The position numbers and the translations under genes are program-made. Below the pieces are notes generated by a model that saw nothing but the letters and a program-made list of their open reading frames with translations, made no database searches and was not told the DNA's origin. Shown piece by piece: positions 7,035 to 63,030 of a DNA stretch of 64,000 nucleotides (positions within the stretch are counted from its first letter, which is position 1; each line of letters starts with the position of its first letter). This DNA comes from Elusimicrobium sp. An273 (GTDB lineage: Bacteria; Elusimicrobiota; Elusimicrobia; Elusimicrobiales; Elusimicrobiaceae). The stretch covers positions 124,001-188,000 of the forward strand of contig NZ_NFJD01000002.1 in assembly GCF_002159705.1 (NCBI RefSeq), read 5' to 3'.

Positions 7035-8536
7035 TACAAGTTTACCTTTTTGATAATCGGCCGCAAGACGGATGCAAACGGATGCGCGCTTACCTGCAGG
7101 GCAGGGGCCGTTTGGCGGCGTTTTAAATCCGCCTGGTTGACGCGGGTTAACACATCCTGCACCACAGCCGCCTTAACATGAAATTTTTTGCTGATTTCTT
7201 CCGGTGTTTTGCCTTCTTCCAAATAAGCGCGGAGCATTTTGTCCAGCACGGAATAGGGCGGCAGTTGGTCTTCGTCTTTTTGGTTGGGGCTTAACTCGGA
7301 AGTGGGGGCGCGTTCAATAATGCCGCGCGGAATGAGCTCCCCTTGTTTATTAATGTATTCCGCCAGTTCGTAAATTTCGCTCTTATACAAATCGCCGATC
7401 GGCTGCAAGCTGCCGCCGGCATCGCCGTAGAGTACAAAGGATCCTACCGCACATTCGCTTTTATCGTCGGTAGAAATCAGCATGGCGTGGTATTCGCTGG
7501 CCAGCGCCCCCAAAATGGTGGTGCGCAGGCGGGACTGCAGTTCCTGTTCGGTAGTGTCTTTGGGGTGCGAAACGATATGTGAAATGGCTTCCTTCACGCC
7601 GCCCAACGCCGGAATCACGCCGACTTCTTCCAAATTTACCCCCAACGTGCGGGCCAATTGCCCGGCCAGCGTTTTGCTTAAATCGCTGGTGCAGTAGGAC
7701 GGCAAAGACACGCAGTACACGCTTTCGCCGCCCAGCGCCTTGGCCGCCAGTACGGCCGTGAAGGCGGAATCAATCCCGCCGCTGATGCCAAACATCACCT
7801 TATCCATTCCGCTTTTATGCACATAGTCGCGCAAACCGAATGCAAGCGCCGAAAGCAATTCTTCCTGCCACGGTTTTTTATAGGAAACGGGCGTATATTT
7901 TTCATCCAAATCAAACGTTAGCGTCTGCTCGCGGAAAGGTTCGCCCAGTAAAATTAGGGAGCCTTTTTTGTCGGCCGCGGCCAAGAGGCCGTCAAAAATC
8001 ATTCCGTCCCCGCCGCCTAACAAACAGCATAATAAGGAAGGAACGCCGTGCTTTTTGGCAAACTTTTTAAGCGCGTCCACCCGCGGTGCGATGTTTCCTT
8101 TTAAATAAGGCCGCGCCGCCAGAAAGAGGACGGCGTCCGCGTCCGGGTCGGCCGGGGCCTGATCGGGCGTGCCCAGCACCAGCTGGAGGCGTTTGCCTTT
8201 ATAAGACACGGTTTCGGTGTCAAAAATTTTGGTGATTTTTCCTTTATATATAAATGCCGCGGCGGTGGCGGGCGCGCCGTTTTGTTTGTCCATATACCCC
8301 AAAACGACGGCCGTTTCTTTGGTTTCTTTGGCAATTTCTTTCAACGCGGCCAGATTTTGCGCCAGCAGCCGTTTGTCGTCAAACAAATCAAACAGCGGGC
8401 AGCCGCACAAGGCCGCCTCCGGCAGCACCCATATATCCGCCTGGGGCGCGGGCGCGCGCAGCAAGTCCAGCACGCGGGCAGAATTGTCGGCGGTGTCGGC
8501 CGCCAGCGGATTAAAAGAAACCAAATTTATTTTCAT
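7034..8536 (-). CDS. nadE: NAD+ synthetase with degenerate glutaminase domain
   Basis: Makes NAD+ from nicotinate adenine dinucleotide with ATP. 500 residues: an N-terminal nitrilase/glutaminase-like domain (to about residue 235) fused to a C-terminal synthetase with the ATP-binding P-loop ISGGIDSAFT, STDDKSECAVGSFVLYGD and the late GIIERAPTSEL. In the nitrilase half the first catalytic residue (Glu in LPEAALCG) is present. The segments that normally carry the LPNY-FDE loop with the Lys and the ICEDxW nucleophile Cys are shortened and replaced (RLQLVLGTPDQAPADP), and no Cys is at that position. The protein is also shorter than typical two-domain NadE (about 540-570). It may use free ammonia. 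First gene of its operon, with a promoter at about 8556-8564 and ribosome-binding site GAGG. Confidence 0.93.
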   Translation of the reverse strand: MKINLVSFNPLAADTADNSARVLDLLRAPAPQADIWVLPEAALCGCPLFDLFDDKRLLAQNLAALKEIAKETKETAVVLGYMDKQNGAPATAAAFIYKGKITKIFDTETVSYKGKRLQLVLGTPDQAPADPDADAVLFLAARPYLKGNIAPRVDALKKFAKKHGVPSLLCCLLGGGDGMIFDGLLAAADKKGSLILLGEPFREQTLTFDLDEKYTPVSYKKPWQEELLSALAFGLRDYVHKSGMDKVMFGISGGIDSAFTAVLAAKALGGESVYCVSLPSYCTSDLSKTLAGQLARTLGVNLEEVGVIPALGGVKEAISHIVSHPKDTTEQELQSRLRTTILGALASEYHAMLISTDDKSECAVGSFVLYGDAGGSLQPIGDLYKSEIYELAEYINKQGELIPRGIIERAPTSELSPNQKDEDQLPPYSVLDKMLRAYLEEGKTPEEISKKFHVKAAVVQDVLTRVNQADLKRRQTAPALQVSAHPFASVLRPIIKKVNL

Positions 8537-61042: not shown

Positions 61043-61334
61043 GAGAGTCTCCTATATAAAAGTAAATCTTTCACTATATTTTACAAAATTTCTCCCCCCG
61101 CAAAGCAAACCTTCGCCACCAGTCCCCCTTCATTCCGCGGCGCCGGAAAGAAAAACGACTGCCAACTGAAAAAGACTTCCTCTTTTGACAGGGCATTCTT
61201 AGCCGCAAGGAGGTTGAAAGCAGTTCTGATTAATTCCTATATTCTCGGAAAACGGACGCCGATGCGCGCCGCGTTTGCAGCAAAACGCCCGGCCATTCGG
61301 CCGGGCGTTTGTTGCAGATTATTCTTACGAGGGA
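61043..61334. other. Intergenic stretch with pilin terminator
   Basis: About 290 bases without a credible gene. Holds the NifU-gene promoter near 61065-61080 and the hairpin at 61283-61310; I see nothing else. Confidence 0.5.
61283..61310 (-). terminator. Terminator of cysteine-rich pilin gene
   Basis: Perfect 12-bp stem AAACGCCCGGCC/GGCCGGGCGTTT with a 4-nt loop; short T-run after it on the minus strand. Confidence 0.7.
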
Positions 61335-62747
61335 TTACAACCACACCACCTCATCTGCTGTACAAGTTTCGCCATAGCTTACGCATCTTAATGTCTGCAC
61401 AAACCCGGGGTAGGGGTGGCTACCCACTTGGTATCCCTCATGCGGACAGCTGTATTTATAGGTACAACTCAACCCGCCGTGCGAACCGTTCATTTTGACA
61501 CCGGGCACGACCTGCGCAGGACATTGGGCCATTTCGTTCCCGGCTGCATTCAGACAGTCACTATAAGCCCATCCGCTATGATTATTAAACGTTATGATAG
61601 GGGCTAATTCCACCCGGCAGCAAGCAAATCTGGCCGGACCCGGCTCGGGTTCGGGATCCACCGTCGGAGCGGAAGAAATATTGGGTTTTTCTCCCGTGCA
61701 GGCATATTTTTTGAATCCGCTGGAAATCCACGAGATATTCTCCGACCGTAATTGCTGGCAGTATGTATCGGTAGGGGAACATGTGTTATTGGCAGCGCGC
61801 AGGAAAGAAGAGCCAAAGCCCACCAATTTGCTCGCGCATGCAGAAGCTCCCGCTATAGATCCTATTTCCTTGATATAGCCTAAATTCTTACCGCTGGCGC
61901 AAATATATTCGGTAGAGTCGGCCCCGTATTGTTCCAAAATACAGGCGGTAAATTCGCTGGAAGAAAGGCCGTCTGCACAGCAATCGTCTTCCGTTTCCGT
62001 GCATTCCTCCACGGTTTTGCTGCAGGTTCCCCAAGCGGAAGGTTGCCACTCTCCATTAGCCGTATTACACGCAACGGTACGTGTCTGCGTACCGCAGCCG
62101 TTGCAAGTTTGGGTAGAAGCCGGTTTCCCGTCCTCCGGGCAGGAACAAAACAGCGGCGCGCTGCAAGCCCCCCACGCACCCCACTGGCCCGTGGTGGTAT
62201 TACAGACACGAGATTGGGTACCTTTGCCCAAGCAGCCGCAGGTTTGGGTGGAAGGGCCCACGCACTGCACTACCGTAGGGCGATTGTCCCCCGCACATTC
62301 TGCGCCGCTTTGATAATCCGCCCGGGCAATCAGATCCGAACAAAGCGGATAATCTTTATTTAATTTCAGGCATTCTTCTTCATTTTCGCAGCACAAACGC
62401 CCGTCTTTATACGACGGCATTTTAAGCGTATAGCCGTATTTCCCTTTGCTTTGCGCTTCTATACCCGTACCGGATTCATTGGTGCTGTATACAAAGTTTT
62501 TGGTATTGGTAGAAGGAATGATATCCGATAATTGCGACAAGTCCGCTATATAATCCTTATCCAATGCACAGCGCTTTTCCTGTTCGGTGCGAACGGCCGC
62601 CATCAGCTCTTCGGCTTCTGTTGTTTTGCGCGTCTCAATCACTTTGCTGAACTTTGGCAGCACTACCGCCGACAAAACCCCTATCACAATCACGACCACC
62701 AACAGTTCCGTAAGTGTAAACGCTTTTTTCTTTCGTTGCGTTTTCAT
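61335..62747 (-). CDS. Large cysteine-rich prepilin-like protein with thrombospondin-1-like repeats
   Basis: 470 residues, almost three times a normal pilin. N-terminus: basic leader MKTQRKKKA then FTLTELLVVVIVIGVLSAVVLPKFSKVIETRK; the cleavage residue is Ala rather than the usual Gly. About residues 160-240 hold two units resembling TSP1 modules: CGCLGKGTQSRVCNTTTGQWGAWGACSAP and CNGCGTQTRTVACNTANGEWQPSAWGTCSK. More than 30 cysteines are spread over the mature protein. The long C-terminal half is unique. Likely a pilus tip adhesin or surface-display protein. Ribosome-binding site GAGGAT. Confidence 0.88.
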   Translation of the reverse strand: MKTQRKKKAFTLTELLVVVIVIGVLSAVVLPKFSKVIETRKTTEAEELMAAVRTEQEKRCALDKDYIADLSQLSDIIPSTNTKNFVYSTNESGTGIEAQSKGKYGYTLKMPSYKDGRLCCENEEECLKLNKDYPLCSDLIARADYQSGAECAGDNRPTVVQCVGPSTQTCGCLGKGTQSRVCNTTTGQWGAWGACSAPLFCSCPEDGKPASTQTCNGCGTQTRTVACNTANGEWQPSAWGTCSKTVEECTETEDDCCADGLSSSEFTACILEQYGADSTEYICASGKNLGYIKEIGSIAGASACASKLVGFGSSFLRAANNTCSPTDTYCQQLRSENISWISSGFKKYACTGEKPNISSAPTVDPEPEPGPARFACCRVELAPIITFNNHSGWAYSDCLNAAGNEMAQCPAQVVPGVKMNGSHGGLSCTYKYSCPHEGYQVGSHPYPGFVQTLRCVSYGETCTADEVVWL

Positions 62748-63030
62748 GTGTTATCCTCGTTCTGTTCCAGTAAAATTACAGCTATCGCCTCTGCATAAAG
62801 ACTTCGCTTTTTATAGTATCAAAAGTAAAAAAGAGAGTCAATTCTTTCTCTTCTATGCGTTCCCGTCAAAAAACGTGTCCGTTTCGGGGGAACGGAATAC
62901 TCCTGCATATGTTTATAGTCTACGCATTTACGGATAAAAAACAAGAGATAAAAAACCCCTTTTCTTTTTACGAAACTTTGCTACAATGGAGGGAACTAAA
63001 TACTACAACAGACGTAAAAGGAGAAAGATC
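62748..63030. other. Intergenic region with divergent promoters
   Basis: About 280 bases. For the pilin: GATACTATAAA on the minus strand near 62810-62820. For the aminotransferase: TTTGCTACAAT ending at 62997. No gene seen. Confidence 0.5.
62989..62997 (+). promoter_or_regulatory. Extended -10 promoter of serC-like gene
   Basis: TGCTACAAT at 62989-62997, then a 33-nt leader with AAAGGAGAAAG before the ATG at 63031. Confidence 0.6.

What the first reader, a model, noticed from the sequence alone, without database searches (positions are those of the whole stretch)
61335..62747. A 470-residue pilin-like protein with TSP1-like repeats and over 30 cysteines
The N-terminus is a type IV prepilin (FTLTELL helix), but the soluble part is three times normal size and contains two thrombospondin-type-1-like modules (CGCLGKGTQSRVC...WGAWGAC and CNGCGTQTRTVAC...WGTC) plus a long cysteine-rich unique region. 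TSP1 modules in bacteria are uncommon and often mediate binding to glycans or host surfaces. This could be a minor pilin carrying an adhesin to the tip of the fibre. The leader ends in Ala before FTL, not Gly, so processing may be by a variant peptidase or may differ.
Basis: partly seen in the sequence, partly recalled or inferred. Interest (0 to 1): 0.62.

Follow-up and report, generated by a model that had tools for sequence, protein, structure and literature searches.

The report
Mosaic long pilins with swappable tips
A gut bacterium of the phylum Elusimicrobiota carries a small family of oversized, cysteine-rich pilus proteins that share one base and stalk by recombination between gene copies but end in different tips, which looks like a way to vary what its surface fibres stick to.

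Summary
In detail: 61335-62747 (-) encodes a 470-aa prepilin with 34 cysteines and two W..W..C / GTQTR.V.C repeats. It belongs to a family of long pilins in one Elusimicrobiales lineage: prepilin domain (~150 aa), 0 to ~11 Cys-rich repeats, then a tip that differs between copies. Genomes carry about two to six, at separate loci. Base and stalk recombine between loci while flanks and tip stay. At one locus, flank and tip are mostly 92-100% identical between two species, but base and stalk are 55-93% identical and match the window gene instead (locus orthology rejected for the stalk, p-AU 3.6e-10; not rejected for the pilin domain alone, 0.175). A single-contig genome of another genus has six such genes with alike bases and mostly unrelated tips. 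TSP1 membership is not shown: no Pfam hit, no TSP1 fold among the listed Foldseek matches, one weak profile hit to human THSD7A (E 0.0067). Ala at -1 is the rule here (40 of 41; Gly in all 35 short pilins tested), yet one canonical prepilin peptidase was found. Best reading: a minor type IVa pilin presenting a recombinationally diversified tip adhesin; display and binding are inferred.

The parts
61335..62747 (-). long prepilin gene, 470 aa, 34 Cys (locus A of the family)
   Evidence: ORF; N_methyl and TIGR02532 over cut-off
62721..62747 (-). short type IVa-like leader MKTQRKKKA, Ala at -1, cut expected before F10
   Evidence: sequence; Ala in 40 of 41 long pilins of the genus; cleavage not tested
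62295..62720 (-). base: prepilin helix and conserved pilin domain, residues 10-151
   Evidence: 32 invariant columns in 26 members
62145..62264 (-). stalk repeat 1, residues 162-201 (CVGPSTQTCGCLGKGTQSRVCNTTTGQWGAWGACSAPLFC)
   Evidence: alignment A4; AlphaFold2 pLDDT 87 for the repeat pair
62001..62141 (-). stalk repeat 2, residues 203-249
   Evidence: alignments A3, A4
61338..62000 (-). variable tip, residues 250-470, 17 Cys; no family match
   Evidence: tip type kept at locus A in four genomes but patches reach dS 1-2 between G000 and G024
62008..62766 (-). stretch (about -19 to +740 of the gene) that corresponds to the shared base-and-stalk exchange tract
   Evidence: sliding identity against G024 locus B, dS, AU test
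61283..61310 (.). 12-bp perfect hairpin with loop ATTC after the stop codon, possible terminator
   Evidence: by eye; not picked up by the scanner

Best explanation
The gene encodes a minor type IVa pilin built as base + stalk + tip. The prepilin helix and conserved ~150-aa domain let it be processed by the cell's prepilin peptidase and built into the pilus made by PilB/PilC and retracted by PilT-type ATPases; the disulfide-rich repeats act as a stiff spacer; the variable C-terminal part is the binding head. Several such genes sit at separate loci. Homologous recombination between them (gene conversion over the shared base and stalk) keeps the assembly part alike and re-pairs it with different tips, so the lineage diversifies what the fibre binds. 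Shown here: the family, its modular structure, ectopic conversion, alike bases with unlike tips, presence of pilus machinery. Inferred: processing, place in the fibre, adhesion, and that variation is selected for.
For: Prepilin motif over cut-off. Conserved base, variable tip in 26 and 14 members. Locus B, G000 against G024: upstream flank (-500 to -140) 97-100%, tip and downstream mostly 92-100%, base and stalk 55-93%, while G024-B matches the window gene at 80-100% over most of that tract; dS 0.92 and 1.35 for locus-B base and stalk against 0.32 for its tip, but 0.18 and 0.11 between the window gene and G024-B; locus-B orthology rejected for the stalk, p-AU 3.6e-10. Pilin-domain tree clusters by genome, 13 changes against 20.3 shuffled, 0 of 200; loci A, H and F rejected as clades. 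Six genes in a single-contig genome with 82-95% DNA identity in base and early stalk and mostly unrelated tips. A tip 60% identical between genera whose bases are 37% identical. PilB, PilC, two PilT-family ATPases, minor-pilin operon, PilD, ComEC in the genome.
Against: No experiment: nothing shows cleavage, display or binding. The tip type is retained at locus A in four genomes, so exchange may be slow. Pilin-domain AU test alone does not reject orthology at loci B (0.175) and C (0.32). Most genomes are metagenome bins. Some copies carry a frameshift or stop, so part of the family may be decaying. Ala at -1 is not the usual residue.
Confidence: 0.6

Rival explanations
1. Ordinary paralogous pilin family: duplicates kept alike in the base by purifying selection and occasional, selectively neutral gene conversion; tips diverge because they are under little constraint. 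No adaptive variation.
For: Gene conversion among duplicates is common in bacteria (general knowledge); tips partly follow locus; some copies are broken.
Against: Conversion tracts keep base and stalk but spare tips, in several genomes and in three genera; tips keep their cysteines and are conserved across genera in at least one case (60%), so they are not free of constraint.
Confidence: 0.25
2. Secreted or periplasmic pseudopilin of a type II-like or Tad-like system, not part of a surface fibre; the cysteine-rich part works inside the envelope or is released.
For: The PilB/PilC operon carries GspG- to GspK-like minor pilins, PilC scores best against GspF, and a TadA-type ATPase is present.
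Against: Two PilT-family ATPases over the curated cut-off, which type II systems do not need; tips of up to 2,000 residues are unlikely to sit in a periplasmic pseudopilus (inference).
Confidence: 0.1
3. Programmed DNA rearrangement (shufflon inversion or diversity-generating retroelement) varies the tip.
For: Conserved N-terminus with variable C-terminus, and contigs that often break inside these genes.
Against: No reverse transcriptase found in the genome (control positive in three genomes); no inverted-repeat pair of the kind flanking shufflon segments at the locus, only one 14-bp pair 2.3 kb apart; copies are whole genes at separate loci; variation is by whole tips. Recombinase genes were not searched.
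Confidence: 0.05

Closest known systems
PilV tip adhesin of the R64/ColIb thin pilus (shufflon); from own knowledge
   Same: Pilin with a constant N-terminal part and a variable C-terminal part that decides binding
   Different: R64 uses a site-specific recombinase and inverted segments at one locus; here whole genes at separate loci and no such repeats; type IVb against a type IVa-like leader
Neisseria pilE/pilS pilin variation; from own knowledge
   Same: Homologous, RecA-type exchange between copies at different loci (inferred here)
   Different: Neisseria varies the major pilin from silent partial cassettes; here copies are mostly complete genes and it is the constant half that is shared while tips differ
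Thrombospondin type 1 domain (Pfam PF00090; THSD7A 8oxr)
   Same: Trp pair, GTQTR.V.C strand, six-Cys unit of similar length; weak profile hit E 0.0067
   Different: Order and spacing of motifs differ; no Pfam hit; no listed PDB fold match
Cys/Trp repeats of large Myxococcota proteins (L098, L099)
   Same: Same repeat unit, e.g. ETQDCGLNNSGSQTRTCTSGSWGNWGAC; 39-51% identical to the window repeats
   Different: Carried by non-pilin proteins, one with a matrixin-type protease domain
Short FTLIELL pilins of the same genome
   Same: Prepilin helix; same machinery presumed
   Different: Mostly 150-250 aa, Gly at -1 in all 35 tested, no repeats or long tip

Membership tests
Type IVa prepilin | Short basic leader, F/M at +1, Glu at +5, hydrophobic helix; curated motif model over cut-off | tested here: met
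   PF07963 26.4 bits over 21.2; TIGR02532 24.4 over 16.3; FTLTE
Type IVa prepilin | Gly at -1 of the cleavage site | tested here: not met
   Ala here and in 40 of 41 long pilins of the genus; Gly in sister genera and in 35 short pilins
Type IVa prepilin | Pilus machinery and prepilin peptidase in the same genome | tested here: met
   PilB/PilC-like, two PilT-family ATPases, one A24 peptidase
Type IVa prepilin | Leader cleaved, protein found in the fibre | not testable with these tools
   needs proteomics or immunolabelling
TSP1 domain | Score over the Pfam TSP_1 cut-off | tested here: not met
   no match at E<=10 for this protein, none at E<=1 for relatives
TSP1 domain | Motif order W..W..CS..CG.G...R.R.C | tested here: not met
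   R..C precedes the Trp pair; CS and CG about 20 residues apart
TSP1 domain | Three-strand CWR-layered fold | tested here: inconclusive
   model pLDDT 87 but no listed TSP1 match, best E 0.39; no positive control run
Neisseria-type pilin variation | Non-reciprocal transfer between homologous copies at different loci | tested here: met
   locus-B tract; that it is non-reciprocal is inferred
Neisseria-type pilin variation | One expressed major pilin locus with promoterless silent cassettes | tested here: not met
   mostly whole genes with start codons and own flanks; expression not testable
Shufflon PilV | Inverted repeats flanking invertible C-terminal segments at one locus | tested here: not met
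   one 14-bp inverted pair 2.3 kb apart only
Shufflon PilV | Dedicated site-specific recombinase next to the gene | not tested
   recombinase families were not searched
Diversity-generating retroelement target | Reverse transcriptase in the genome | tested here: not met
   no PF00078 match in G000, 97.8% complete

The most novel reading that the evidence does not exclude
A family-wide pilus diversification system in gut Elusimicrobiota: general recombination between dispersed long-pilin genes keeps the assembly base and Cys-repeat stalk alike and re-pairs them with a shared pool of tips that also passes between genera, up to giant pilins of over 2,000 residues, giving varying adhesion or antigenicity without site-specific recombinase, silent cassettes or retroelement.
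Probability: 0.35. Interest if true: 0.75.

Novelty: new variant of a known kind. Interest (0 to 1): 0.6.

Why it matters
If true, it adds a distinct route to variable pilus tips: constant halves kept alike by gene conversion across separate loci, with tips exchanged. It would help explain why a poorly known gut lineage with ~1.5-Mb genomes keeps about 45-130 short pilin-like genes plus several long ones, and offers a natural set of tip domains to test for gut ligands. It also shows that TSP1-looking repeats here have bacterial relatives and need not come from a host. I found no description of this in the open papers searched, but the E. minutum genome paper was not held, so earlier notice of parts of it cannot be excluded.

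Tried and rejected
TSP1 by Pfam: nothing; the genome search for PF00090 also rang in no control genome, so alone proves nothing. Full-length AlphaFold2 and its Foldseek search: too poor to use (pLDDT 43). Diversity-generating retroelement: no reverse transcriptase. Shufflon: no fitting inverted repeats. Viral relatives of the protein: none found. Phase variation by homopolymer slippage: in the frameshifted copies looked at, breaks lie at different places without long tracts, so decay or sequencing error is as likely. Assembly chimerism as the cause of the G024 mosaic: unlikely, because its locus-B base differs from its locus-A base by 6.5% in DNA and the pattern recurs in a single-contig genome. 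Literature searches gave no account of long mosaic pilins in Elusimicrobiota.

Full report
1. What is there. The gene at 61335-62747 (-) is a clean 470-aa ORF with an ATG start. Its N-terminus scores over the curated cut-offs for the prepilin motif; the other 400-odd residues match no Pfam or NCBIfam family and no solved structure of weight. It has 34 cysteines. It is transcribed away from an aminotransferase-like gene and is followed by a 12-bp perfect hairpin (gene identities and hairpin by eye). Relatives in named records include 'uncultured Elusimicrobiales bacterium' metagenome genomes. One genome of a sister genus (G128, 1,643,562 bp, one contig) is probably Elusimicrobium minutum (size from memory).

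2. A family, not a singleton. The genome has 50 prepilin-leader loci; most are short pilins. Four belong to the long kind: the window gene (locus A), B (C4:176 kb, 449 aa), C (C3:246 kb, one in-frame stop after the pilin domain) and a more distant D (C1:303 kb). Every one of 60 other genomes of the genus has relatives; in twelve well-assembled ones up to about six clear long copies per genome were seen. Long pilins of the genus are 342-743 aa with a median of 35 cysteines. The layout is constant: a pilin domain of about 150 aa with 32 invariant columns in 26 members, 0 to 11 recognisable cysteine repeats, then a C-terminal part that differs. In two sister genera the same layout recurs: six genes of 527-634 aa in G128, mostly with another Cys repeat (CPTTCPTGQ.RTS.QYSEDGACC) in the stalk, and giants of 1357-2285 aa with 101-164 cysteines in genus g12.

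3. Base and stalk recombine between loci. Between G000 and its close relative G024, locus A is plainly orthologous: 96-98% identity in flanks, dS 0.05 in the pilin domain. At locus B the flank from -500 to -140 is 97-100% identical and the tip and downstream part mostly 92-100%, with dips to 80-85%; between them identity falls, to as low as 39% just upstream of the start codon and 55-93% in base and stalk. From about +40 to +770 the G024 copy instead matches the window gene at 80-100%. Synonymous distances say the same: locus-B orthologues dS 0.92 (pilin domain) and 1.35 (stalk) against 0.32 in the tip, while the window gene against G024-B gives 0.18 and 0.11. G024's locus-B product thus joins an A-type stalk to a B-type tip on one contig. 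A stalk tree rejects locus-B orthology (p-AU 3.6e-10). The pilin-domain tree alone does not for B (0.175) or C (0.32), but does for loci A, H and F (3e-11, 5e-6, 1e-3), and its rows cluster by genome (13 label changes against 20.3 in shuffles, 0 of 200 as low). In G029 two genes with different flanks share 98-99% of base and stalk ends, and the middle is missing from the assembly, as expected of a collapsed repeat; several other assemblies also break inside these genes. In single-contig G128 the six genes are 82-95% identical over base and early stalk.

4. Tips are exchanged or imported. Of 53 long pilins, many pairs with bases 75-100% identical have tips without detectable similarity, and homologous tips occur on bases only 37-60% alike; one tip is 60% identical between genera whose bases are 37% identical. 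Even at locus A, tip patches between G000 and G024 reach dS 1-2 while the pilin domain is at 0.05, which points to imported sequence. Yet tips partly follow locus: the window's tip type is kept at locus A in four genomes. Exchange is real but not shown to be fast.

5. TSP1 or not. The repeats contain TSP1-like pieces but in another order and spacing. Neither this protein (E<=10) nor seven relatives and two Myxococcota repeat proteins (E<=1) hit a TSP1 model. The repeat pair folds confidently in AlphaFold2 (pLDDT 87), but no TSP1 fold is among the 50 best PDB matches listed (small disulfide domains are a hard case and no positive control was run). The repeat profile finds human THSD7A at E 0.0067 and almost nothing else. 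Related repeats occur in Myxococcota proteins, and within the phylum in 3 of 90 sampled genera, all of one family. I call them TSP1-like in motif content only.

6. Leader. Ala at -1 is the rule in the long pilins of this genus (40 of 41), but Gly in all 12 long pilins of the sister genera and in all 35 short pilins tested. The genome search found one prepilin peptidase, with the normal two-domain layout. Ala may slow cleavage and keep these pilins minor; that is a guess.

7. Mechanism, shown and inferred. Shown: pilus machinery (PilB/PilC-like proteins with minor pilins on contig C2, two PilT-family ATPases, PilD), ComEC, family layout, ectopic conversion, tip/base re-pairing. Inferred: that long pilins enter the type IVa fibre, that tips bind something, and that variation is selected. 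No reverse transcriptase or shufflon-like repeat arrangement was found, so ordinary homologous recombination, perhaps fed by DNA uptake, is the simplest route.

8. Standing. It is a prepilin by sequence, with an unusual -1 residue; not shown to be TSP1; works like, but is not, pilE/pilS or the PilV shufflon. New variant of a known kind. The E. minutum genome paper was not held in the library, so earlier notice cannot be excluded.

Noticed in passing
G000 whole genome; the window is C2:124001-188000: 50 prepilin-leader loci in a 1.5-Mb genome, mostly single scattered short pilin genes; relatives show up to 132 candidate places.
   Followed up: partly
L106:5592-6317 against L100:3100-3117 (beyond the window gene's 3' end): In G024 about 725 bp carrying a complete short pilin gene are present where G000 has a few bases, as if short pilins come and go as single-gene units.
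   Followed up: partly
L164:391-7245, L165:535-6114, L166:1591-6321, L167:1-4071: Pilin-like proteins of 1357-2285 aa with 101-164 cysteines in genus g12.
   Followed up: partly
L102 (G000 locus C), L108, L132, L114, L070: One long-pilin copy in each of several genomes is broken by a single frameshift or stop while the rest of its reading frame stays intact.
   Followed up: partly
L098, L099 (Myxococcota MAGs): Very long proteins with many tandem copies of a related Cys/Trp repeat, one with a matrixin-type protease domain; no Pfam model covers the repeat.
   Followed up: no
L101:8190-8318 and 8368-8496: A 129-bp direct repeat at 99% identity in the upstream flank of the locus-B pilin.
   Followed up: no
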